Source of the DNA: an uncultured bacterium
GTDB lineage: Bacteria > Patescibacteria > Microgenomatia > Levybacterales > UBA12049
NCBI GenBank assembly: GCA_946885425.1
Contig: CAMPGJ010000021.1
Coordinates: 1 to 12,594, forward strand
Length of the DNA stretch: 12,594 bases
Direction of reading: 5' to 3'
In this document: positions 1-12,594 of the stretch, piece after piece
How positions within the stretch are numbered: position 1 is the first letter of the stretch
Layout: each line of letters begins with the position of its first letter
Program-made: the position numbers and the translations under genes
Notes under the pieces: generated by a model
The model's database searches: none
What the model saw: the letters and a program-made list of their open reading frames with translations, nothing else
What the model was told of the DNA's origin: nothing

Positions 1-68
1 GGATGCCGTGAATCGGACACGGACTGCCGCACCCCCAGCGCGGTGTACTACCACTATACTACATCCCG
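1..68 (-). tRNA. tRNA-Pro, anticodon GGG, 3' end cut by the window edge
   Basis: Read on the minus strand from base 68, the sequence folds as a standard cloverleaf. It has a 5' acceptor strand CGGGATG, T8 A9, a D stem GTAT/GTAC with a 7-nt loop, and an anticodon stem CCGCG/TGCGG. The loop CTGGGGG places GGG at positions 34-36 (window bases 34-36). A 4-nt variable loop and a T stem CCGTG/CACGG follow. The 3' acceptor strand stops after CATCC, so the last two paired bases, the discriminator and any encoded CCA lie outside the window. The C1 start (expected C1-G72 pair) is typical of bacterial tRNA-Pro. Whether CCA is encoded cannot be seen. Confidence 0.92.
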
Positions 69-2071: not shown

Positions 2072-3340
2072 ATGTCTACACAACAAGAAGATCTAATACA
2101 ACTTGAGAAGAAGCTTCTAGAGCGACAGGAGAAGCTTGATGCCAAACAGGACCAGCTTGAAGAAGAAAGAGAAGAGCTGAAAAAAAAGCGTGAGGAATAT
2201 CTCACAAAACTTCAAAAAGTATCCAATTTTACTACTGAAGAAGCAAAGCAAAAGCTTCTTGAAGAAACCCAAAAAGATGCTGCTGCTATGATGGCAAAAA
2301 TTATCAGAGAAACAGAAGAGACTGCAAAACGTACTGCTGATAAAAAAGGTCAAGAAATTATTATAGATAGCTTAAAACATGGCGCATTAAATTTTATTCC
2401 TGAATACACTGTCTCTGTAGTCAGAGTAGAGCAGGAAGATATAAAAGGAAGAATAATCGGAAAAGAAGGGCGTAATATTCGCGCTTTTGAGCAGGCTACA
2501 GGTGTAGACGTAGATCTTGATGAAGAGGGTATTATCCGTTTGTCTTCATTTGATCAGATTCGACGTGAAGTCGCACGTCGTTCTTTGGAAAAGTTATTAA
2601 AGGATACAAGGGTACAGCCATTCCGAATCGAAGAGGTTGTGAAACAGACAAAGGAAGAGCTGGAAAAGATAATGTTTGAAGAAGGGGAGAAGCTTGCTAA
2701 TGAAGTTCAAGTTTATAATTTACCTGTAGATCTATATCCGCTTTTGGGTAGGATGAAGTATAGAACCTCATATGGACAAAATTTGCTTGTTCATACGTTA
2801 GAAGAAACAAAGATAGGTATTCATATCGCTCATGAGATCGGAGCCAATGTAGATATTGTCCGTTTGGGATGCCTGTTCCATGATATTGGAAAGGTATTAG
2901 AAGGCGATGGGAGCCATGTTAAGCTTGGTGTGGAGTTGTTGAAGCGCTACAACTTCCCAGAACCTATCGTTAACGCTGTTGGTGAGCATCATGAAGATAA
3001 GCCCTTTTCATCAGTAGAATCAGTAATCGTTCATATTGCTGATGCTATCTCCGCTGCTCGTCCAGGAGCGCGTTACGAAGATTTGGAAAATTATGGAAAG
3101 AGACTTCAAGAGATGGAGAAAATTGCAAAGAATTATGAGGGAGTTGAAGACGCGTATGCATTTGAGGCAGGACGTGAATTGAGAGTTATTATAAATCCAG
3201 GTAAACTTGATGATAATCAAACAGTTCTTCTTTCACGTCAGATTCAGGAAGAGGTAAGTAGGTCCTTGGCTGTTCCCGGTGAAGTTAAAGTAACAGCAAT
3301 TAGAGAGTTCCGCGCAGTATACCCCGCTTCAACGGTATAA
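2072..3340 (+). CDS. rny: RNase Y endoribonuclease lacking an N-terminal membrane anchor
   Basis: RNase Y initiates mRNA decay by endonucleolytic cleavage. Domains in order: a charged coiled coil (about 5-95), a KH RNA-binding domain with GRIIGKEGRNIR at 126-137, and a metal-dependent HD domain with H241, H270-D271, the GEHHEDKP segment (H306-H307) and D324, ending in a conserved C-terminal part. The protein has 422 aa. The Bacillus protein is about 520 aa and starts with a membrane helix; here the first residues are already the coiled coil. An in-frame TAA at 2066 rules out an upstream extension. No convincing Shine-Dalgarno lies before the ATG. The gene has its own promoter at 1926-1954 and a perfect palindrome covering its stop codon. 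The recA-recX-rny order is common in bacteria. Confidence 0.96.
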   Translation: MSTQQEDLIQLEKKLLERQEKLDAKQDQLEEEREELKKKREEYLTKLQKVSNFTTEEAKQKLLEETQKDAAAMMAKIIRETEETAKRTADKKGQEIIIDSLKHGALNFIPEYTVSVVRVEQEDIKGRIIGKEGRNIRAFEQATGVDVDLDEEGIIRLSSFDQIRREVARRSLEKLLKDTRVQPFRIEEVVKQTKEELEKIMFEEGEKLANEVQVYNLPVDLYPLLGRMKYRTSYGQNLLVHTLEETKIGIHIAHEIGANVDIVRLGCLFHDIGKVLEGDGSHVKLGVELLKRYNFPEPIVNAVGEHHEDKPFSSVESVIVHIADAISAARPGARYEDLENYGKRLQEMEKIAKNYEGVEDAYAFEAGRELRVIINPGKLDDNQTVLLSRQIQEEVSRSLAVPGEVKVTAIREFRAVYPASTV

Positions 3341-3961: not shown

Positions 3962-4828
3962 TTATTTCCCTAAATTAGGGATAACACCTGAGGCTGAGTA
4001 CATCTCAGGGGTGAGATGCCTGTTTTCTTCTGAAATGTTTTTGAAAGCTTCTTTTACTTCTACCGGGGAAAGGTTTACCAATGATTTAGGTGAAGCGTAG
4101 ACAAAAGCAAAAGGACTTAGTTGATAGGATGGAACTACGGCTGTATGCAACTTAACCCAAGGGAAGACCTGTTGTAGTCGTTTATAAAAGGTATCAACCC
4201 ATTCTTTTTGGAATAATAAAGAACCACTTTGGATTGCCACAACGCCATCCTTAGTCAATGCATCCTTAACATCGTTTAAAAAAGGTTCTTCAAATAATTG
4301 TTCTGCCGGGCTATCTGGTTTTGGATCAGTAAGGTCGAGAACTATTACATCAAACTCATTTTTATGTGATTTTAAAAATTCTGCTCCATCAGTAAAAAGA
4401 ACCTTTACCCTTGGATCATCAAATCCATTTTCTGATAAACTAGGGAGAAATTTTTTGCTTACTTCTGTTACCCTTTCATCTATCTCTACTTGTATTATTT
4501 CTTCTACGCTTTTTATTCTCAACGCTTGTTTAATTGCTCCTCCATCACCACCGCCAATAATTAGGATTTTACGAGGAGAGCCCATGCGGATACTGGGGAG
4601 GAGCACCATCATCTCATGATATATATATTCATCTGATTCAGTAGTCTGAATAATATCATCGATGACTAACATCTTCCCAAAAAACGGTGTAGAAAAGACT
4701 TGAATATGTGCATATTGTGATTGCTCATCATGCAAGATTTCTTCTACAAAAGTTCGAATCTCTACCGTATCTTGTGCATAAGGCAATCCTTTTTCTGAAA
4801 ACCAAAAGTTTTTTTTCATATCACTCAT
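3962..4828 (-). CDS. speE: Polyamine aminopropyltransferase (spermidine synthase)
   Basis: The enzyme transfers the aminopropyl group of decarboxylated AdoMet to putrescine, giving spermidine and methylthioadenosine. The 288 aa are normal length. Visible are the N-terminal beta region, LVIDDIIQTTESDEYIYHEM (54-73), the nucleotide-binding GGGDGG (92-97), VEID (114-117), DGAEF (147-151) and the catalytic DLTDP (165-169). The C-terminal part is cytosolic and fully alpha/beta. The ATG at 4828 overlaps the speD stop in an ATGA arrangement, pointing to translational coupling; a second Met at residue 4 is an alternative start. Donor and product are inferred from the speD neighbour; a longer-chain or agmatine-using variant cannot be excluded from sequence alone. 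Confidence 0.95.
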   Translation of the reverse strand: MSDMKKNFWFSEKGLPYAQDTVEIRTFVEEILHDEQSQYAHIQVFSTPFFGKMLVIDDIIQTTESDEYIYHEMMVLLPSIRMGSPRKILIIGGGDGGAIKQALRIKSVEEIIQVEIDERVTEVSKKFLPSLSENGFDDPRVKVLFTDGAEFLKSHKNEFDVIVLDLTDPKPDSPAEQLFEEPFLNDVKDALTKDGVVAIQSGSLLFQKEWVDTFYKRLQQVFPWVKLHTAVVPSYQLSPFAFVYASPKSLVNLSPVEVKEAFKNISEENRHLTPEMYSASGVIPNLGK

Positions 4829-5208
4829 TGGAATTTTTTAATTCCTCTAGATACTTCCTCTATGTCTATTGTTGTCGGGTTCAGCATTTTCTTTAGGACC
4901 TCAACAGTTTTATGTGGATCCATCTTTTCACCACAGGTAAAGACATCTATTGCTGCATATTTGCGTTCAGGCCAGGTGTGAATAGAAAGATGGGATTCAG
5001 CTAGTAGGGCAATTGCAGTAACTCCAAAGGGAGAAAACTGGTGAGAAGCTATTTCTAAGACTGTAGCGTTAGAAAGTTTTGCGGCTTTCTCTAACGCTTC
5101 AACCAAAAATGCATGATCGTTAAGAACCTTTGATTTGCATCCCCAGAATTCAACTAACAAATGAACACTATGAAAATCATCTTGTTGTTGTAGAGAAGTT
5201 TTTTTCAT
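4825..5208 (-). CDS. speD: S-adenosylmethionine decarboxylase proenzyme, prokaryotic class 1B
   Basis: This pyruvoyl enzyme decarboxylates AdoMet to supply the aminopropyl donor for SpeE. The 127-aa proenzyme is the usual size. The self-cleavage site is E71-S72 in LAESHLSIHTWPE, with H77 five residues and C92 (DVFTCG) twenty residues further on. These are the same spacings as the pyruvoyl serine, processing histidine and catalytic cysteine of the Thermotoga enzyme, so it should be active. The gene lies upstream of and overlaps speE by 4 nt. A plausible promoter at 5327-5355 gives a leader of about 110 nt containing a palindromic repeat. No clear Shine-Dalgarno precedes the start; a 5-codon ORF (MALKA) ends across the speD ATG. 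Confidence 0.96.
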   Translation of the reverse strand: MKKTSLQQQDDFHSVHLLVEFWGCKSKVLNDHAFLVEALEKAAKLSNATVLEIASHQFSPFGVTAIALLAESHLSIHTWPERKYAAIDVFTCGEKMDPHKTVEVLKKMLNPTTIDIEEVSRGIKKFQ

Positions 5209-5236
5209 GCTTTGAGAGCCATACCGAAATATAGTG

Positions 5237-5292
5237 GAGATATCTCATACAACTTTGGTGGCTTGAGATATCTCGGCTCCGCTCGGAATGAC
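5237..5292. repeat. Palindromic repeat element in the speD leader
   Basis: The palindrome GAGATATCTC occurs twice (5237-5246 and 5265-5274). The second copy continues into a CGGCTCCGCTCGGAATGAC tail, resembling the other AATGAC-ending elements in this window. It lies in the 151-nt spacer between the ligase and speD, inside the predicted speD 5' UTR, so it could fold in the mRNA. Confidence 0.6.
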
Positions 5293-5326
5293 AAAATGTG
5301 CGTAGCACTATAATTCGTATTTAAAT

Positions 5327-5355
5327 AATATAGTTGAATGACATTAAAATGTCCA
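5327..5355 (-). promoter_or_regulatory. Predicted speDE promoter
   Basis: On the minus strand a -35 box TGGACA (5355-5350) is followed after 17 nt by a -10 box TATATT (5332-5327), each five of six to consensus. It lies immediately downstream of the ligase stop codon, so speDE need not depend on read-through from the ligase gene. Confidence 0.6.
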
Positions 5356-5359
5356 GATG

Positions 5360-6601
5360 TTAAATTCCTATCGGCATGAAATAACAAAAATCATCAGTGA
5401 TTTCTCTGTTGCATCCACGTAAGCCAGTTGCTCCTGGAACAAATTTTCCATCTACTTTGTATACCCATGATTCGTAGACCCAATTAAGTGTTTCTCCTTC
5501 TATGGGTATCTGAGAGACGGTGAGAAGCTCCTGATACACTTTTTTTTGTTTGACATAATAATCGTTGAGATATCTGCTTCTTGTCGTCTCACCATTTCTA
5601 ACGATATAACATCCCTGTCCTTGTCTTCCCCAAATTGGCTTAGCGATATATGATTTGCCTAGTTTTTTTGGAGTGAGGTATGTTTTAGGAAAATATTTTT
5701 CTGCTGCTTTATATTTACCTGTGAAGATATCTTCAGCATGTTCTGTTATATATGCTAGTGTTCCTTTTGATTGGACAAAATAAGCCGGGATTGCATGAAC
5801 TAGTGCAAACGATCGTTTAGCAAGTGCTTTAATAAAAAGATTGAACATTGATTCTCCATCTGCATAAACGCGCTCTTCCAGCCATTCCGGCACATCCCAA
5901 AAAATAAGCGCATCAAACTGTTTGCCTGTTCCTGTGTTGAAAGGTATGTCATCTTCCAGCGTAAAGTCGAGATTATCAATAGGAAATACCTCAGAAGTAT
6001 ATTCACAGAAATTAGCAAGCCAGAGCATTGTAGTAAGATCTTCCATATCGTTAAAGCAAACGAATCCTACAGTTGGCTTATCCCTTCTGTGAGGAGGTAA
6101 ATCAGCTAAACTTTTAGTAATTGCTTGGTTGAGCGCTTTTTTTAAATGGTTATTTGATTTGGGGGTTGGATTGCGAAGTCCAAATTGTTTTGTCATTAAA
6201 GGTGTTGCCATTTCTGGTTCAATCCATAGAGTCGGTGCTTCGGCATTAATTTCAAATAGTACTGGATGTCCATCTTTCCAAGCCCATCCAATCCTCATGC
6301 AAAAAAGCTCTTCTTTTGGCAGTTTCAAAAATTTTTTATGGTGTTTGGGAAAACCCCATTTCTCAAGCTCATCCTCATCCCAATCATAGATACGATTGGC
6401 TACCAAATCGAAAATCTCAGCTGTTTTCACATTTGCTCTTTGCAATTCTAACATCGCATGCTTGGATTCTTTATGACAGGTATAGAGCATATAGGGGTAA
6501 TCTATTTTTTTGCCGTCAATTTCGTAGTAACTATCCCAAAAAGGTGGAAGCCCACTTTTTTCAAAAAATGCAGATCGTTCAGGAGATATGAATTTGTTCA
6601 T
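5360..6601 (-). CDS. Glutathionylspermidine synthase-family ATP-grasp ligase (GSP_synth)
   Basis: The family (E. coli Gss synthetase domain and the YgiC/YjfC proteins) joins a carboxylate to an amine, classically glutathione to spermidine, using ATP. At 413 aa this is a stand-alone synthetase-type protein without the amidase domain of Gss. Family landmarks are R103 in MRIGWAW, FEINAEAPT at 116-124 (E117, N119), KPIWGRQGQG at 321-330, the YQELL near 356 and a C-terminal ITDDFCYFMPIGI corresponding to the family's closing Phe-x-Pro-His segment. Departures from the usual pattern are a Gly where an Asp normally follows R103 by two, and RQG for REG. It sits beside speD-speE, so the amine is probably spermidine; the acid partner is unknown. 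The promoter at 6610-6638 makes the mRNA leaderless or nearly so. Confidence 0.85.
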   Translation of the reverse strand: MNKFISPERSAFFEKSGLPPFWDSYYEIDGKKIDYPYMLYTCHKESKHAMLELQRANVKTAEIFDLVANRIYDWDEDELEKWGFPKHHKKFLKLPKEELFCMRIGWAWKDGHPVLFEINAEAPTLWIEPEMATPLMTKQFGLRNPTPKSNNHLKKALNQAITKSLADLPPHRRDKPTVGFVCFNDMEDLTTMLWLANFCEYTSEVFPIDNLDFTLEDDIPFNTGTGKQFDALIFWDVPEWLEERVYADGESMFNLFIKALAKRSFALVHAIPAYFVQSKGTLAYITEHAEDIFTGKYKAAEKYFPKTYLTPKKLGKSYIAKPIWGRQGQGCYIVRNGETTRSRYLNDYYVKQKKVYQELLTVSQIPIEGETLNWVYESWVYKVDGKFVPGATGLRGCNREITDDFCYFMPIGI

Positions 6602-6681: not shown

Positions 6682-6998
6682 GTCCTAGGAAGAAGGACCG
6701 CTACGATGCATCTTATGGTGTGTTGAGGAAAGTCCAGACAACAGTATACAGGGGATGGAGCGTAAGCTCCGATGTGAAAGCACTGGTGTCTCAATTCTTT
6801 ACTCACGTGTGGAATTGGGAACAGGTCCTGATTTAACAGGGTTTGAGAGCAGCAGAGACGAGTGAGTGTGAAACGGGCAATCCTACCTGTTGCAACCTCC
6901 GACTGGTACGTTATTAGGCGTATACCCGAGTACCGAAGCGAGGGCATAGACAAATTGCGGTTGTGAAACAGAATCTGGCTTATTCTCTTCCTAGGGCT
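6682..6998 (+). ncRNA. rnpB: RNase P RNA (bacterial class A-like), compact
   Basis: This is the ribozyme that removes the 5' leader of pre-tRNAs. The signature GAGGAAAGTCC lies at 6725-6735. The 3' conserved blocks are visible as ATAGACAAATTGCGG and ACAGAATCTGGCTTAT (near 6946-6982), and TCCAGA/TCTGG gives the P4 pairing. P1 is a clear 10-bp helix, CCTAGGAAGA (6684-6693) with TCTTCCTAGG (6986-6995). At about 315 nt it is a little shorter than the E. coli RNA (377 nt), and peripheral helices appear reduced. The L15 GGU that binds tRNA CCA is not obvious by eye. A run of T follows P1. The predicted protein ORFs across this span are by-products. Confidence 0.95.
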
Positions 6999-7005: not shown

Positions 7006-7098
7006 GTTGCTAGCGACGTAGGAGCGCGGCAAACTCGTCAAAGATATGTAATAGACGAGATTGCTTCGTCGTTCATTCTTCACTCCTCGCAATGACGA
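7006..7098. repeat. Intergenic repeat pair downstream of rnpB
   Basis: Two repeat-like segments fill the spacer. The first (7006-7034) runs from GTTGC to GGCAAAC around a GC-rich core. The second (7057-7098) starts GAGATTGCTTCGTC and ends CCTCGCAATGACGAAG. In the second, ATTGC pairs with GCAAT and CTTCGTC with GACGAAG. The AATGAC end matches the elements at 131-155 and 5265-5292. No gene is seen in this 106-nt spacer. The hairpin may close the convergent transcripts of rnpB and the minus-strand operon. Confidence 0.6.
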
Positions 7099-7104
7099 AG
7101 AAAC

Positions 7105-7917
7105 TTAGGGTAGTGGTTGAGTTGATGAGTCTCCTTCTGGTGCATATTCATATTTATAGGTATCAGTTGCAAAACAAGCCGGATCATCTTTTTCGCAGGG
7201 AACAGGCTTTTTTTCTAGTTCACTAAAGGAGATAGTTCGAGTTTCCAGATCTATTTTTGTATTCCCTACAACACCTAGGATTTTCTCTTCTCCAGATTTT
7301 ATATTTTTTATTATTACACTAACAGGTAATGCTTCTGGTGGAGGAGCGCTCTTAACTATAGCAAACACTATATATTGATCCGGGATAAAATTTGTAATAT
7401 AAGCAATTCCACCGTTGTAGGGTGGCTCTCCTGTCCTAAGTTCATTCTCCCATAATTTTTTTGTGGTTAGTCTTTGCAGGTCAATTTGATATATATAATT
7501 TGTTGTGTCTGTTTTTCCACTGACGAAAGACATCGAAAGATACCGCTTATCATTGCTTAATTGGTAGTTCTCAATTCCGGGGTGGCCTTCAAAGGAAAAA
7601 AGTTTTTTAGGATTTTTTAATTCATCAAAATTTGCAAATTGGTTAGGATCTTTTTTGAGGTTATACGATCTTTCATAAAAAGTAAGATGACCTATCGAAC
7701 TGGACGGTTTTTTATGCTCAACTAATAAATCTGGATATCGATAAAAAAGAATATTAGCTTCTCCTTTTTGAGCAAGATAAAACATATTTTCTTGAGGAGC
7801 TGCTGTCTGTTTGTTGTTACTATTTTGCATAGTTTTCTGAAATGTTATAACCCCTACAGTAACTAGCATTATAAGGAAGAAAACTATGTAATGTATTTTT
7901 TTGTTAATTTTTCTCAT
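7105..7917 (-). CDS. Membrane-anchored protein of unknown function behind the multicopper oxidase
   Basis: A 270-aa protein I do not recognise. Residues 1-8 are basic (MRKINKKI) and about 9-27 form one hydrophobic segment, a signal anchor with the rest outside. The body has repeated beta-rich pieces of the kind seen in propeller or lipocalin-like folds (YLSMSFVSGKTDTTNYIYQIDLQRLTTKKLW; PVSVIIKNIKSGEEKILGVV), but four or more clear blades are not visible. Two cysteines, PCEKDDPACFA near 240-250, could form a disulfide. There is no metal-site motif. The start ATG lies 2 nt after the oxidase stop, so both are surely on one transcript and probably coupled in translation. It may be a partner or chaperone of the oxidase at the membrane; that is inference from position. 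Confidence 0.85.
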   Translation of the reverse strand: MRKINKKIHYIVFFLIMLVTVGVITFQKTMQNSNNKQTAAPQENMFYLAQKGEANILFYRYPDLLVEHKKPSSSIGHLTFYERSYNLKKDPNQFANFDELKNPKKLFSFEGHPGIENYQLSNDKRYLSMSFVSGKTDTTNYIYQIDLQRLTTKKLWENELRTGEPPYNGGIAYITNFIPDQYIVFAIVKSAPPPEALPVSVIIKNIKSGEEKILGVVGNTKIDLETRTISFSELEKKPVPCEKDDPACFATDTYKYEYAPEGDSSTQPLP

Positions 7918-7919
7918 AA

Positions 7920-9998
7920 TTAATGTGGATCATTTCCTGTTCCTGCTCCATGTTTATAAGGTGTATAAACATTTTCATATTTATTGAGCATCATCATGCC
8001 ATTTGCTGCATGTTGCAGTACATGGCAATGGAGCATCCAAATGCCTTCATTATCAGCAAGTATAGCGACTTCTGCAGTTTCTCCAGGTTTTACAACTACT
8101 GTATCCATGTGGATAGGGCTTCCAGTAACGGGTACACCATTGATTTTCAGGACTGTATAAAATTGTCCATGGATGTGCATAGGGTGTATCATGTTTGAAT
8201 TATTCACGTAGGTTATTTTGGTCAATTGTCCTTTCTTTACGATTATATCAGGGATATTTGGAAAGAGCTTGCCGTTAATACTCAAATCTGCCCCTAATGT
8301 AAGTGTATATTCCGCGTCAAAAGTTGATTTAGGAAGCCTAGGGTCATCTTTTTTGACACCGTAATTGAGATAACTAAACACAGGAAGTGTATTCAAATTT
8401 GGAACACTTGGCTCTGTGCCTTGTCCTATGGTGAAGTTTTGTAAATTTTCTAACTCCAGTAATTTGACACTGCCTGTAGCGGGCATAATAAATTCTAAAT
8501 CAACACGGTTTCCCATTGCAAATTCAATAAGTTGTGATGAAATTTGTTGTGGCTCATTTATCTTTTGTCCATCAAGTGAAAAGACTTTGAATGGTGCACC
8601 GACAAAGGCTACCCGCAAGAGCGTCCCTGAAAAATCTGATTCGCGTGCATTGATTAACCTGAGCCGGACTCTTTCGCCTGGTAGAGCACTTAGTTGGGTT
8701 GTCGTCGGGCTTTTTACGGTATTGTTGTACGTGATTGTATGATCTCTTTGGAAGTTATCTTTATCTGTGGGCACTCTCGGTTCGACAATAATTGCACCCA
8801 TTAAACCTTTTGGTACCTGTTGTTGCGAGTTCTGATGAGGGTGGTACCAATATGTTCCGCTATCGGGCACAATAAAGTCGTATTGGTATGATCCACCTGG
8901 AGGCACAGAATTCTGTGTAACACCAGATATACCGTCTTGTGAAGCAGCAACTCTAACCCCATGCCAGTGGATGGCTGTTGCTTCAGGCAGTTTATTTACA
9001 AAATTAATTCGCATGTGATCGCCCTGGACTACACGCCATTCTGGGCCGGGCGTTTTTCCTGTGCTAAGATCACTATTGAATGTCCATATGGTAGAGGAGC
9101 CGTTCAACGGTTCTGCAATAAGATCGAATTTTCTTAAGGCTTCTGTTCCTGGTATATATTTAAGATCGTCTATAGATATCATACCAGTCGGGGTAGGCGA
9201 TACTGGACAAGGAGAGTGGCTTGGTTCACTTGGAGGCACAGTGGGTGTAATTGCTTCGGTTGGCAATACTGTTGGTACATTTGTCGGGCCAGGCGTAGGC
9301 GTAAGGATAGGCACTGGTGTTGGTAATCCTCCACCACCTAAAATCTGTAGAATGAGTTGGATAAACTTTAGAATAAAATCAAAAAGACCATTATTTTTTT
9401 TCTTTCTTTTAGTATTTGCTTGCATATCATTATCATGGCCGTTGGTTATATGACTTTCTACATTTGGGTCACAAGGATCGGTTGTTGGGGTAGGTGTTAT
9501 AACGTATGGTTTTGTTGTTGGGGTAGGAGTCACAGGCTCAGATGTTGGTGTCGGACATGCTCCTAAGCAGGCGAAGGTTGGGCTTATATTCTGTGGAGGA
9601 GTTGGAGAAGGCGCTATTATAGATGTCGGAGCTGCGGTTACTATAATAGTTCCTGTCATATTAGGATGCACACTACAATGGTAATAGTAAGTTCCGGGTG
9701 TTGAAAAAGTTTTTGTGTAGGTTTGCCCTTTATTTAATAACGGAGAATCCCATGAATTTGATGTCCCTCCAGTGTCAGAGGTTGTGGTATGTATGTCTGT
9801 GTCATCATTTCTCCAGGTAATGCTTGTTCCTGCCTGAATAGTAATATTTTGTTGAGAAAATGCATTATTTTTTATTATTATAGTTGCTGTGCTTTGAGCA
9901 TTTGCAGTATGGCTACGTTTATCAATAAAGGGAATGGCCAGAAAAAGAAAAAGAAATAAGGTCAATGATAGTAATAATCTGGTAGAAATAAGATTCAT
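7920..9998 (-). CDS. Secreted cupredoxin-multicopper oxidase fusion
   Basis: Multicopper oxidases oxidise a substrate (phenols, Cu(I), Fe(II), Mn(II)) and reduce O2 to water. The 692 aa contain a signal peptide (1-34, ANA|QS), then a cupredoxin (about 37-120) with the type 1 ligands H70, C108, H111 and M114 in the amicyanin-like CxxHxxM spacing. A Thr/Pro-rich linker (about 120-280) follows, interrupted by KRKKK and a hydrophobic segment at 205-224. The oxidase body (about 285-692) has all four copper motifs: HWHG 344-347, HPH 386-388, HPMHIHG 605-611 and HCH 657-659 with H663 and M668. The site is complete, so it should be active. The cupredoxin could hand electrons to the oxidase. The start ATG lies close to its predicted transcription start without a Shine-Dalgarno. 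Substrate cannot be told from sequence. Confidence 0.93.
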   Translation of the reverse strand: MNLISTRLLLSLTLFLFLFLAIPFIDKRSHTANAQSTATIIIKNNAFSQQNITIQAGTSITWRNDDTDIHTTTSDTGGTSNSWDSPLLNKGQTYTKTFSTPGTYYYHCSVHPNMTGTIIVTAAPTSIIAPSPTPPQNISPTFACLGACPTPTSEPVTPTPTTKPYVITPTPTTDPCDPNVESHITNGHDNDMQANTKRKKKNNGLFDFILKFIQLILQILGGGGLPTPVPILTPTPGPTNVPTVLPTEAITPTVPPSEPSHSPCPVSPTPTGMISIDDLKYIPGTEALRKFDLIAEPLNGSSTIWTFNSDLSTGKTPGPEWRVVQGDHMRINFVNKLPEATAIHWHGVRVAASQDGISGVTQNSVPPGGSYQYDFIVPDSGTYWYHPHQNSQQQVPKGLMGAIIVEPRVPTDKDNFQRDHTITYNNTVKSPTTTQLSALPGERVRLRLINARESDFSGTLLRVAFVGAPFKVFSLDGQKINEPQQISSQLIEFAMGNRVDLEFIMPATGSVKLLELENLQNFTIGQGTEPSVPNLNTLPVFSYLNYGVKKDDPRLPKSTFDAEYTLTLGADLSINGKLFPNIPDIIVKKGQLTKITYVNNSNMIHPMHIHGQFYTVLKINGVPVTGSPIHMDTVVVKPGETAEVAILADNEGIWMLHCHVLQHAANGMMMLNKYENVYTPYKHGAGTGNDPH

Positions 9999-10010
9999 AG
10001 AATCTAAATC

Positions 10011-10089
10011 AGCATACTAAATATTACTAGTATGAGTCAATAATAAAGCAACAATTGTATTGACATACTAGTATTTCATTTGTTACTGT
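10011..10089. promoter_or_regulatory. Divergent promoter region with dyad operator
   Basis: TACTAGTATGAGTCAATA (10025-10042) and TATTGACATACTAGTA (10058-10073) form a near-perfect inverted repeat with a 2-nt difference. Each arm holds an 8-bp palindrome TACTAGTA (10025-10032 and 10066-10073) next to a -35 box. Leftward: TTGACT (10040-10035), 18 nt, TATGCT (10016-10011), with the oxidase ATG about 6 nt after the predicted start. Rightward: TTGACA (10060-10065), 18 nt, TG-T-TACTGT (-10 at 10084-10089), with the 394-aa gene ATG at 10117. The palindromes fall within both spacers, an ideal place for a repressor. I do not know the cognate regulator; none is encoded in the window. Confidence 0.7.
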
Positions 10090-10116
10090 TTAGTAAGTAA
10101 GTTTGATTATCAGGCT

Positions 10117-11301
10117 ATGCATGCTTTTAACGACAAAAGATTTGTAGGGTTTTCTCTCATTTTATTGCTTCTTGGCTTCTCTGTAATTGTTACTGCATCC
10201 CGACAAAGCCAGAGTGATAGGGCCAAAGCCTCACAAGGCCAACTACAAACATACACTGGTAGCGGAACCTCCGGGCGGAATCCTTCTCAAAGGACCAACA
10301 ATATACATGCAAATGCTATGATTCCTATCCCCAAGGTGGATACATATCCCATTCCTCCGTTGGAAAGGGAGGACATCCTTAATTACATTTTAGGTGGTAC
10401 CAAAGGTGGAACAGCTACTGCTGGCGTGCAGAATAGCACTTCTTATATGGTTCCTAATAGCAGAATGCCAACTGCGGGAGAGAATGAATATGATGCTTCT
10501 GTTGCATTAATATATTATTATCAGATAAAAGCGCATATTGCTTATACTGATGTCGTTTTCAACTTTGAAGATGGGGATAAGGTCAAAGATATTGTTGATA
10601 ATATTTCCAGTGGTAGTGCTGTTCAATTGCGGACGCCAGAGGCTGACACTTTATTAAAAGTGGCAGTTACATATAAGGGCGACCTTTGTGGATTTGGTGA
10701 ATATAATAATCCTGGGATGAAACAATTGATCCTAAAATGGGGCAGGCCGGATCTGGCTAATGAATTAGGAGTGGGAGAAACAGATATTGAGAGTATAGGA
10801 TTGGTAGCTCAGGCAATTGATGAAGAACCAGATCAGGAGAAGCGAAGAGAATGGTTAGCAGAAATATATGTCTTTTATGACAATATTAATCCTAGAAGTC
10901 CCAGTGGTGCAGTCCCTCAACTGCGTGAATATCAGTGTGCTATCGACATAAATGCGGATGGAACATTTGATAGGCTTGTTGACAACTATGTGAAGGGTAT
11001 TAAAACAACCAATCTTATAAATCCTACACCTGGTGGTTTGGGATATCCTCTTCTTGCCCCATTGGTAACAACTCCTGTCACGCCTACTTTTTCTCCACTT
11101 GGTGGTGGCTCACCTACAACAGCGGCAACACCTACACATGAACCAACAGATATACAAGATGAACCAACAGTAACACCTGTTGTAGTTGTAGCAACAGCTA
11201 CTCCGGCTCCACAAGCACCAGCGCCCGCAGATGGCGGATTATTAGGTTTAATTATACAGTTGATTCTCGGTTTAATTCTGGCGATATTCGGCTCGAGATA
11301 A
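10117..11301 (+). CDS. Secreted surface protein of unknown function with Thr/Pro linker and hydrophobic tail
   Basis: A 394-aa protein I do not recognise. Residues 10-27 (GFSLILLLLGFSVIVTA) are a signal peptide or anchor. About 30-120 is low-complexity and polar. About 120-305 looks globular, with two cysteines (C191, C274) that could pair and a loop DINADGTFD at 277-285 resembling the start of a calcium-binding DxNxDG loop, without the usual acidic residue at position 12. A Thr/Pro/Ala linker (about 308-372) leads to GG and a hydrophobic segment (375-391) ending FGSR, a tripartite tail like known C-terminal sorting signals. It diverges from the oxidase gene across a shared operator and shares its linker style and the IQLIL core, so both probably sit at the same cell surface. 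Confidence 0.85.
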   Translation: MHAFNDKRFVGFSLILLLLGFSVIVTASRQSQSDRAKASQGQLQTYTGSGTSGRNPSQRTNNIHANAMIPIPKVDTYPIPPLEREDILNYILGGTKGGTATAGVQNSTSYMVPNSRMPTAGENEYDASVALIYYYQIKAHIAYTDVVFNFEDGDKVKDIVDNISSGSAVQLRTPEADTLLKVAVTYKGDLCGFGEYNNPGMKQLILKWGRPDLANELGVGETDIESIGLVAQAIDEEPDQEKRREWLAEIYVFYDNINPRSPSGAVPQLREYQCAIDINADGTFDRLVDNYVKGIKTTNLINPTPGGLGYPLLAPLVTTPVTPTFSPLGGGSPTTAATPTHEPTDIQDEPTVTPVVVVATATPAPQAPAPADGGLLGLIIQLILGLILAIFGSR

Positions 11302-11315
11302 TTGCATTAGCTAAT

Positions 11316-11324
11316 TGATATAAG
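11316..11324 (+). promoter_or_regulatory. Possible extended -10 promoter of the His/Arg repeat gene
   Basis: TG-A-TATAAG lies 35 nt before the start codon, without a good -35 box. The 57-nt spacer after the 394-aa gene has no intrinsic terminator, so the repeat gene may instead, or also, be read from the 10060-10089 promoter. Confidence 0.4.
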
Positions 11325-11343
11325 AGTTGTATCTTATGCGAAA

Positions 11344-11352
11344 GGGGGTGAT
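11344..11352 (+). promoter_or_regulatory. Strong Shine-Dalgarno of the His/Arg repeat gene
   Basis: GGGGGTGAT ends 6 nt before the ATG at 11359. It parallels the hup ribosome binding site and decides both the start and the reading frame of this low-complexity gene. Confidence 0.8.
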
Positions 11353-11358
11353 TTAATT

Positions 11359-11571
11359 ATGGCAAGTTCAGGAAGTGGTTCAGGATCAGGTTCAGGACAC
11401 GGTGGTTCAGGACGCGGTGGTTCAGGACACGGTGGCTCAGGTCGCGGTGGCTCAGGACACGGTGGTTCAGGACGCGGTGGTTCAGGACACGGTGGTTCAG
11501 GTCGCGGTGGCTCAGGACACGGTGGAACAGGAGCAGGCGGCTCAGGACACGGTGGCGGCGGACGCGGTTAA
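11359..11571 (+). CDS. 70-aa Gly/Ser-rich repeat protein with alternating His and Arg
   Basis: I do not recognise a family. After MASSGSGSGSGS the protein is six units of ten residues on the pattern GSGHG-GSGRG. His and Arg alternate strictly in units 1-4, with Ala for Arg in unit 5 and a Gly for Ser in unit 6. It has 6 His and 5 Arg, no Cys, no acidic residue and no hydrophobic segment, so it should be disordered and basic. Third-position changes between units (GGT/GGC, GGA/GGT) are silent in this frame but not in the overlapping frame at 11375, which supports this frame. A strong Shine-Dalgarno and a terminator frame the gene. Metal or copper binding through His, or nucleic-acid binding through its GRGG motifs, are both possible. 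There is no export signal. Confidence 0.75.
   Translation: MASSGSGSGSGSGHGGSGRGGSGHGGSGRGGSGHGGSGRGGSGHGGSGRGGSGHGGTGAGGSGHGGGGRG
11389..11568 (+). repeat. Six tandem 30-bp units
   Basis: Exactly 180 nt, six units of 30 bp, each made of two similar 15-bp halves differing mainly by CAC versus CGC. Units 1-4 are nearly identical; 5 and 6 have diverged. The array is open in all three forward frames because it lacks stop codons. Confidence 0.9.
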
Positions 11572-11585
11572 TTTGCGTCTTAAGC

Positions 11586-11601
11586 GCGGACGATAATCCG
11601 C
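11586..11601 (+). other. Small hairpin after the His/Arg repeat gene
   Basis: GCGGA (11586-11590) and TCCGC (11597-11601) with a 6-nt loop, 15 nt after the stop codon. No T-run follows; it may protect the 3' end ahead of the real terminator at 11614. Confidence 0.5.
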
Positions 11602-11613
11602 AAAAGAAATTTC

Positions 11614-11651
11614 AACAAAAACCCGTACACACTAGTGAGCGGGTTTTTGTT
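11614..11651 (+). terminator. Intrinsic terminator of the 394-aa / His-Arg repeat transcript
   Basis: A 12-bp stem, AACAAAAACCCG (11614-11625) with CGGGTTTTTGTT (11640-11651), has a 14-nt loop and a T-rich end. The A-rich left arm also gives a T-run on the minus strand, so it can stop the helicase transcript coming from the right. Confidence 0.88.
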
Positions 11652-11696: not shown

Positions 11697-12594
11697 CTAT
11701 TTGCCAATGTAGGAGCGCAGGACGCAGTATTCACATTCTTGTTTCTTGCAGCCTTTATCCCAGAAGTCAAAAGACAAAATTTCATTTGTAATTTCACGTA
11801 TTTGCTGCTTAAGTGATGCTACTTCGTCGTCTGAAATATCAAAAACCTCGGCTTTATACAGTCCTTTTTCGTTTGGCTCAACGAATTCAATGACGCCCTT
11901 AACCATCCTCATCTTTTTATATTGATAGCCGTCAAGAAGAATTTTATAAAAAATTAATTGTCTTTTATAATCTCCATTTCCTGACTGCGTATTTCCTTCG
12001 ATAATGTTACGGCTTTTGGGTTTTCCAGTTTTAAAATCATATACAATCACATCATTTGAGTTATCTATGGTTTCAATCATGTCTATTTTCCCCGTTAAAG
12101 CAATATTTTTAGAAAAATGTACACCTTTTACATTTAGTTCGCTAATTAAATTATTGCTCCATGTGGCTGCATGCTCGTAGTAGTAGCCTTCAAGAACTTT
12201 TTTGCCCTTCTCTTTAAGCTCGACATTTTCTTGTTCTGTCAGTGGCTGTTTTAATAGTGCTTCATCATAATAGGTAAGTAGGAGAGGTAAAGAGGCTTTT
12301 TTGTTGCTACGCTTAATATAAGCGCTAAGTGCTTGGTGAATTGCAGATCCGAACATTGCACTCTTACTCATCGCTTCAGGAATTGCCAAAAGATTTCTGA
12401 AAAAATATCTCCAAGGACATTCCAGATAATTGTTTAGGTGTGTTGCTGCGAAGCCTTTCCGGGCGAACATCTCAGCAAAAAGATCCTTGTTTGCTAAATA
12501 TTCATTTATAGTATCTGTTGTATTATTTTTATCAAATGTGTTTAAAATTATTTGCTTATTATCCAAAAACTTTTTTTCAAATTCTTCTATGTTT
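11697..12594 (-). CDS. C-terminal PD-(D/E)XK nuclease part of a UvrD/RecB-type helicase, cut by the window edge
   Basis: The reading frame is open to the right edge; the first start-like codon, TTG at 12566, lacks a Shine-Dalgarno and is probably internal, so the N-terminus lies outside. The visible 298 residues show the RecB-family nuclease motifs in order: a Cys in NYLECPWRYFF, GSAIH, GKIDMIE (metal Asp), VYDFKTGK (DxK) and the QLIFY motif. At the C-terminus, CKKQECEYC precedes the end VLRSYIGK. With the early Cys these could hold an Fe-S cluster as in AddB and Cas4. The NIEEFEKKFL start resembles the end of the helicase part of UvrD-like repair helicases. The likely role is double-strand-break end processing, feeding RecA. 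A stand-alone nuclease is less likely. Confidence 0.88.
   Translation of the reverse strand, partial: NIEEFEKKFLDNKQIILNTFDKNNTTDTINEYLANKDLFAEMFARKGFAATHLNNYLECPWRYFFRNLLAIPEAMSKSAMFGSAIHQALSAYIKRSNKKASLPLLLTYYDEALLKQPLTEQENVELKEKGKKVLEGYYYEHAATWSNNLISELNVKGVHFSKNIALTGKIDMIETIDNSNDVIVYDFKTGKPKSRNIIEGNTQSGNGDYKRQLIFYKILLDGYQYKKMRMVKGVIEFVEPNEKGLYKAEVFDISDDEVASLKQQIREITNEILSFDFWDKGCKKQECEYCVLRSYIGK

What the first reader, a model, noticed from the sequence alone, without database searches (positions are those of the whole stretch)
7105..11651. Possible undescribed copper-linked surface module: oxidase fusion, anchored partner, tailed surface protein and His/Arg repeat protein under one dyad operator
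Seen: two divergent transcription units share one dyad promoter region. Left: cupredoxin-multicopper oxidase and, 2 nt later, an anchored unknown protein. Right: a secreted tailed protein and, with no terminator in the 57-nt spacer, a His-rich repeat protein, then a terminator. Known: multicopper oxidases need copper loading and often sit with copper-handling proteins; His-rich Gly repeats can bind metals. Inference: the four genes form one co-regulated unit for copper, O2 or metal oxidation at the cell surface of a small-genome bacterium in which respiration is usually reduced.
Basis: partly seen in the sequence, partly recalled or inferred. Interest (0 to 1): 0.72.

Follow-up and report, generated by a model that had tools for sequence, protein, structure and literature searches.

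The report
Copper oxidase with anchored partner gene
An uncultured bacterium carries an exported copper enzyme that probably uses oxygen, fused to its own electron-carrying domain and encoded beside a conserved membrane-anchored partner; the two genes transcribed the other way may belong to the same unit, but this could not be shown.

Summary
The left unit encodes an exported protein: a blue-copper (cupredoxin) domain, a Pro/Thr-rich linker with an amphipathic helix, and a multicopper oxidase (MCO) core with a complete copper-ligand set. Next to it is a 270-aa membrane-anchored protein with a propeller-like predicted fold. This pair recurs: 4 of 9 database rows of the 270-aa family (the window's own included) have the same longest-contig length as an oxidase row. 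The right unit encodes a rare secreted 394-aa protein (7 database rows, own cluster included) and a 70-aa Gly/Ser/His/Arg repeat protein that looks coding but has no export signal. The four-gene 'copper module' is not established: the dyad is only modestly better than chance, DNA of close relatives could not be reached, and the 270-aa and 394-aa families conserve Cys pairs but no His. Best reading: an oxygen-reducing surface metallo-oxidase/laccase with its own cupredoxin relay and a dedicated anchor partner, a new variant of a known enzyme kind.

The parts
7920..9998 (-). Cupredoxin-multicopper oxidase fusion, 692 aa: hydrophobic signal/anchor 8-26, cupredoxin up to about 120, linker, MCO core about 281-680
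   Evidence: Pfam PF13473 1.1e-15, PF07732 1.7e-34, PF07731 2e-28; one group with 7 relatives, SH-aLRT 99; ligands
9639..9881 (-). N-terminal cupredoxin domain with type-1 copper ligands H70, C108, H111, M114 (C-x2-H-x2-M loop; the assignment follows the recalled amicyanin pattern)
   Evidence: amicyanin model 54.3 bits, below its cut-off of 110.2
9555..9569 (-). CLGAC motif (residues 144-148) in the linker
   Evidence: CLGxC in 9 of 9 of the close oxidase family (P0008-P0016), a CLGxxC variant in 1 of 7 of the 394-aa family, 0 of 111 other MCOs fetched, 0 of 9 of the 270-aa family
9327..9389 (-). Amphipathic helix in the linker (GLFDFILKFIQLILQILGGGG, residues 204-224)
   Evidence: polar residues 3-4 apart, read from the sequence; the helix itself was not modelled
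7959..9158 (-). MCO core: H344/H346, H386/H388, H605, H608/H610, H657-C658-H659, H663, M668
   Evidence: all but M668 invariant in the 8-sequence alignment A4
7105..7917 (-). 270-aa membrane-anchored partner: hydrophobic segment 8-26 and an all-beta, propeller-like domain with invariant C241/C248
   Evidence: 9 rows, own included; AlphaFold2 pLDDT 85.4, pTM 0.75; mostly propeller neighbours
9999..10116 (.). Divergent intergenic region with two TACTAGTA palindromes (10025, 10066) next to two -35-like boxes (TTGACT 10040-10035 minus; TTGACA 10060-10065 plus)
   Evidence: one search lists the minus-strand promoter only, the plus-strand box was read by eye
10117..11301 (+). 394-aa secreted protein: hydrophobic segment 9-27, probably helical domain with invariant C191/C274, Pro/Thr tail, C-terminal hydrophobic helix 373-391
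   Evidence: model has pLDDT 49 (low)
11233..11289 (+). C-terminal hydrophobic helix of the 394-aa protein, in a context similar to the oxidase linker
11359..11571 (+). 70-aa Gly/Ser/His/Arg repeat protein, units GSGHG and GSGRG mostly alternating, pI 12, no hydrophobic segment
11608..11658 (+). Rho-independent terminator-like hairpin after the repeat gene

Best explanation
The left unit makes an exported, membrane-associated, oxygen-reducing multicopper oxidase that carries its own electron-relay cupredoxin, joined by a long Pro/Thr-rich linker with an amphipathic helix, together with a dedicated membrane-anchored propeller-like partner. Most likely mechanism: the cupredoxin or the type-1 copper of the MCO core takes electrons from a reduced metal (Cu+ or Fe2+/Mn2+) or a phenolic compound outside the cell, and the trinuclear site reduces O2 to water. 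The gain would be protection from copper or O2. The partner would hold or assemble the enzyme at the membrane. Shown: domain make-up, ligands, recurrence of the pair in part of the family. Inferred: substrate, direction of electron flow, role of the partner. The right-hand genes may be co-regulated through the shared promoter region; that is inference only and is treated under the rivals.
For: Cupredoxin and Cu-oxidase domains above Pfam cut-offs. Trinuclear His and type-1 Cys/His of the MCO core invariant in the 8-sequence alignment. The profile aligns in one stretch over its residues 304-679 to the multicopper oxidase 6vow_A, and the best five solved chains are named laccase, multicopper oxidase or copper oxidase. 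The 8 family members form one group (SH-aLRT 99) next to MCO rows without a cupredoxin match, one of them from Aggregatilineales (domains). For 4 of 9 rows of the 270-aa family, own included, the longest contig (14422, 12359, 10950, 6441) equals that of an oxidase row. The genes are 2 nt apart. The 270-aa model is confident. O2 scavenging is proposed for terminal oxidases of CPR bacteria (PMC9166423, passages), if the host is one.
Against: No substrate evidence. The middle MCO domain has no Pfam match of its own: PF00394 scores best on residues 582-666, over the last domain. CopA and CueO models match far below their cut-offs. No further copper family turned up in the ten proteins scanned, and only 12.6 kb is visible. 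Oxidase rows on contigs of 6278, 5373 and 19740 bases (P0013, P0015, P0016) have no 270-aa row of equal contig length, so the pairing may be limited to the nearer branch. P0014 has no cupredoxin domain, nor has P0012, which is a partial protein on a 1532-base contig.
Confidence: 0.6

Rival explanations
1. All four genes form one co-regulated surface copper/O2 module. A regulator on the paired TACTAGTA palindromes drives both sides. The oxidase and the 394-aa protein assemble through their similar tails. (This concerns the right-hand genes and can be true together with the best explanation.)
For: TACTAGTA palindromes beside two divergent -35-like boxes, 41 bp apart. Oxidase linker and 394-aa tail resemble each other: against the window oxidase's linker, 0 of 500 shuffled tails score as high for 5 of 7 family members. 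Both Cys of the CLGxC motif are present in P0005 and both are missing in the other six. No terminator between the 394-aa gene and the repeat gene.
Against: Repeated palindrome in 20 of 2000 shuffles, inverted pair in 50 of 2000; overall symmetry 138 of 1000. Two of 7 tails do not stand out (P0006 24 of 500, P0007 96 of 500), and with three other linkers only 2, 1 and 4 of 7 tails beat every shuffle. No 394-aa row shares a contig length with a listed oxidase or 270-aa row (120 of 986 oxidase rows listed). No conserved His in the 394-aa family. Repeat protein has no export signal.
Confidence: 0.2
2. The two sides are unrelated neighbours. The shared tail is a general surface-anchoring or oligomerisation device of this lineage, used by many secreted proteins. 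The repeat protein is a cytoplasmic, cationic, RGG-like nucleic-acid- or metal-binding protein.
For: 394-aa rows sit on contigs of 8108, 12914 and 29429 bases with no listed oxidase row of that length. Repeat protein: pI 12, 6 His, 5 Arg, no hydrophobic segment. Other proteins of the lineage could not be surveyed for the tail.
Against: The contig-length index also misses this window's own 394-aa gene, so it has false negatives. The tail motif was found in 0 of 111 other MCOs and 0 of 9 partner proteins, though most of those MCOs come from other lineages and say little about this one.
Confidence: 0.45
3. The oxidase is a nitrite reductase-like enzyme (NirK plus cupredoxin), as reported for CPR bacteria, and serves nitrite reduction rather than O2 reduction.
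For: NirK is described in CPR genomes, with a separate cupredoxin proposed as donor (PMC5581439, passages; PMC12931201, passages). Cu_nitrite_red model hit of 60.2 bits. A copper nitrite reductase (9cck_A, 6.6e-36) is the sixth-best solved chain.
Against: Hit far below the cut-off of 296.3. One chain carries the four HxH-type pairs and the HCHxxxH motif expected of a trinuclear MCO (pattern recalled). Better-scoring solved chains are oxidases.
Confidence: 0.05

Closest known systems
Laccase / CueO / CotA-type multicopper oxidases (Pfam PF07732/PF00394/PF07731)
   Same: First and last Cu-oxidase domains and the full set of type-1 and trinuclear ligands
   Different: Adds an N-terminal cupredoxin and a linker of about 160 residues with CLGxC and an amphipathic helix; the middle domain is not recognised by Pfam on its own; CopA and CueO models match only below cut-off
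Cupredoxin (plastocyanin/amicyanin) domains
   Same: H70, C108, H111, M114 and a C-x2-H-x2-M loop
   Different: Fused to its likely redox partner instead of being free
NirK-cupredoxin systems of CPR bacteria (PMC5581439; passages read)
   Same: Copper redox enzyme plus cupredoxin proposed in bacteria with little respiration
   Different: NirK is a different enzyme with a separate cupredoxin; here it is an MCO fusion
Laccases reported in a few Patescibacteria MAGs (PMC9868632; one passage read)
   Same: Same broad enzyme class in bacteria of that superphylum
   Different: No architecture or neighbourhood in the passage seen; lignin degradation was suggested there

Membership tests
Three-domain multicopper oxidase | First and last Cu-oxidase domains above Pfam cut-offs | tested here: met
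   PF07732 118.9 bits (cut-off 21) and PF07731 99.3 bits (cut-off 20.4)
Three-domain multicopper oxidase | A separate middle Cu-oxidase domain | tested here: inconclusive
   PF00394 scores 37.1 bits (cut-off 21) but on residues 582-666, over the last domain; length and the one-stretch alignment to 6vow_A (profile 304-679) fit three domains
Three-domain multicopper oxidase | Eight trinuclear His and the type-1 Cys/His ligands | tested here: met
   H344, H346, H386, H388, H608, H610, H657, H659 plus H605, C658, H663, invariant in A4; roles assigned from the recalled MCO pattern
Three-domain multicopper oxidase | Copper binding and O2 reduction | not testable with these tools
   Needs purified protein
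Copper-resistance oxidases CopA / CueO | NCBIfam subfamily/equivalog cut-off | tested here: not met
   152.4 of 478.95 (TIGR01480) and 111.1 of 525 (NF008205) bits
Copper nitrite reductase NirK | TIGR02376 cut-off | tested here: not met
   60.2 of 296.3 bits
Cupredoxin domain | Complete type-1 copper ligand set and Pfam cut-off | tested here: met
   H70, C108, H111, M114; PF13473 57.9 bits, cut-off 27
Beta-propeller protein (270-aa partner) | Closed propeller of repeated four-stranded blades | tested here: inconclusive
Four-gene copper surface module | Four genes linked in related genomes | tested here: inconclusive

The most novel reading that the evidence does not exclude
A lineage with reduced respiration builds an oxygen-reducing copper complex on its surface. 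A cupredoxin-MCO fusion and an unrelated secreted 394-aa protein carry the same tail module (CLGxC knot, Pro/Thr spacer, hydrophobic helix) through which they assemble with a propeller-like anchor, all switched from one divergent operator.
Probability: 0.15. Interest if true: 0.65.

Novelty: new variant of a known kind. Interest (0 to 1): 0.42.

Why it matters
A self-contained, exported O2-reducing copper enzyme with a built-in electron relay would show how bacteria with little respiration (if the host is one) deal with oxygen or metals. The tail shared by the oxidase and an unrelated secreted protein is a concrete, testable lead on how this lineage holds proteins on its surface.

Tried and rejected
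CPR genomes could not be reached: the 'of' field takes only genome handles, none of the 80 genome loci is a CPR genome by its title, and the control genomes were printed without handles. So 'small-genome bacterium' stays untested.

Looking for the families elsewhere: the 394-aa profile found no relative in genome contigs (124 pattern matches, none confirmed) or viral contigs (173, none). The 270-aa profile found none in viral contigs (32, none); it was not run on genome contigs. In those 85 loci, tblastn with 5 of 7 394-aa members (cores 81-330) and 7 of 9 270-aa rows gave 0 hits, and the window's cupredoxin gave 1 (L083).

The 394-aa fold: pLDDT 49, too low, so no fold search was run. Its PetC-anchor and anti-CRISPR Pfam hits are below cut-off and were rejected. 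Solved-structure searches with the 270-aa and 394-aa profiles gave one hit at E 0.76 (rejected) and none. Promoter and terminator scans were no richer than shuffles (12 against 13.8; 4 against 4.6). Whole-region symmetry was not significant.

Rows dropped: P0012 (partial) and P0017 were left out of A4; P0012 was left out of the tree, which kept 115 of the remaining 119 rows after a length filter. Protein searches scored only the 7997 candidates sharing most words for the 394-aa and oxidase queries, and all 361 for the 270-aa query. Tail tests used 4 of the 8 A4 linkers. The repeat protein had no search in the large protein database.

Papers: searches (MCO, cupredoxin, laccase, copper or oxidase terms with Patescibacteria, Microgenomates or CPR; and MCO/cupredoxin fusion terms) showed no title or listed abstract start describing this fusion or these partners. 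Only the passages were read; no paper was read whole.
Full report
Layout. The spacer between the last two has none. To the left lies a convergent RNase P RNA gene (6687-6992). The 270-aa start is not certain: database row P0128 begins 16 residues later.

The oxidase. Pfam finds a cupredoxin and the first and last Cu-oxidase domains; the middle-domain model PF00394 matches best over the last domain, so the middle domain is not recognised on its own. Total length and a one-stretch alignment to the multicopper oxidase 6vow_A fit a three-domain enzyme. The 8-sequence alignment A4 keeps the trinuclear His and the type-1 Cys and His invariant (ligand roles from the recalled MCO pattern). The axial residue is Met in P0008-P0010 and Leu in the other five (context printed). 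The cupredoxin has H70, C108, H111 and M114. In a tree of 115 MCO cores (quick method; from the 120 listed of 986 hits) the 8 members form one group (SH-aLRT 99) next to P0017-P0019 and then P0020-P0022, of which P0020 is named Aggregatilineales. CopA, CueO and NirK models match below cut-off. The sixth-best solved chain is a copper nitrite reductase, after five oxidases.

The right-hand unit. The 394-aa family has 7 rows, the first being the cluster of the window's own protein, with invariant C191/C274, no invariant His and a low-confidence helical model. The repeat gene shows coding constraint (pairwise differences 40/14/10 at codon positions 3/1/2) but no export signal, so a surface role is not supported. 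No 394-aa row shares a contig length with a listed oxidase or 270-aa row. But the window's own 394-aa gene is hidden in cluster P0001, whose longest contig is 1621, so this index misses at least one known case.

The shared tail. CLGxC occurs in 9 of 9 of the close oxidase family, as CLGGPC in 1 of 7 of the 394-aa family, in 0 of 111 other MCOs and 0 of 9 of the 270-aa family. A hydrophobic-helix pattern, drawn up after seeing the sequences, matches 8 of 9, 5 of 7, 0 and 0. Against the window oxidase's linker, the last 100 residues of 5 of 7 394-aa members beat all 500 shuffles; P0006 (24 of 500) and P0007 (96 of 500) do not. With the linkers of P0011, P0014 and P0016, 2, 1 and 4 of 7 beat every shuffle. 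The best alignment of P0005 covers the CLGxC motif and Pro/Thr stretch but not the helix, and shuffling breaks up Pro/Thr periodicity, so these figures flatter the match. The strongest single item is the near-identical stretch in P0005 (VTPTFSCLGGPCPTPT against ISPTFACLGACPTPT).

The operator. Two TACTAGTA palindromes lie 41 bp apart beside two -35-like boxes; one search lists only the minus-strand promoter. Chance gives a repeated 8-nt palindrome in 20 of 2000 shuffles and a 10-nt inverted pair in 50 of 2000; overall symmetry is unremarkable (138 of 1000). It is suggestive and untested in relatives.

Literature. NirK with a cupredoxin is described in CPR genomes (PMC5581439, passages; PMC12931201, passages). 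Laccases are reported in a few Patescibacteria MAGs (PMC9868632, one passage). O2 scavenging is proposed for CPR terminal oxidases (PMC9166423, passages). That the window is from this superphylum is my inference from recalled gene content, not a result.

Verdict. A genuine, rare variant of a known enzyme kind with a recurring anchored partner. The larger module remains a hypothesis, with one new supporting clue (the tail) and several gaps.

Noticed in passing
window 6687-6992 (+): RNase P RNA gene. The best Rfam model of its clan is the archaeal one (84.8 bits, just above the cut-off of 84), odd for a bacterial contig.
   Followed up: no
window 3962-6601 (-): Polyamine cluster: glutathionylspermidine-synthase-like protein, SAM decarboxylase SpeD and spermidine synthase SpeE in a row.
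   Followed up: no
window 7040-7100: Palindromic sequence between rnpB and the 270-aa gene (hairpin 7054-7070) that resembles widespread REP-type elements (recalled resemblance).
   Followed up: no
window 11697-12594 (-): RecB-like PD-(D/E)XK nuclease (PF12705) running off the window end, convergent with the repeat gene.
   Followed up: partly
window 2072-3340 (+): RNase Y read as 422 aa; the N-terminal model matches only from profile position 96 to 196 of 201, so the usual membrane anchor may be missing.
   Followed up: no
window 1-68 (-): tRNA gene cut by the window start (Rfam 44 bits), not reported by ARAGORN.
   Followed up: no
L083 12322-12576: An IMG/VR locus with an MCO relative also holds a cupredoxin-like match (36% over 85 residues, E 5e-8).
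   Followed up: no
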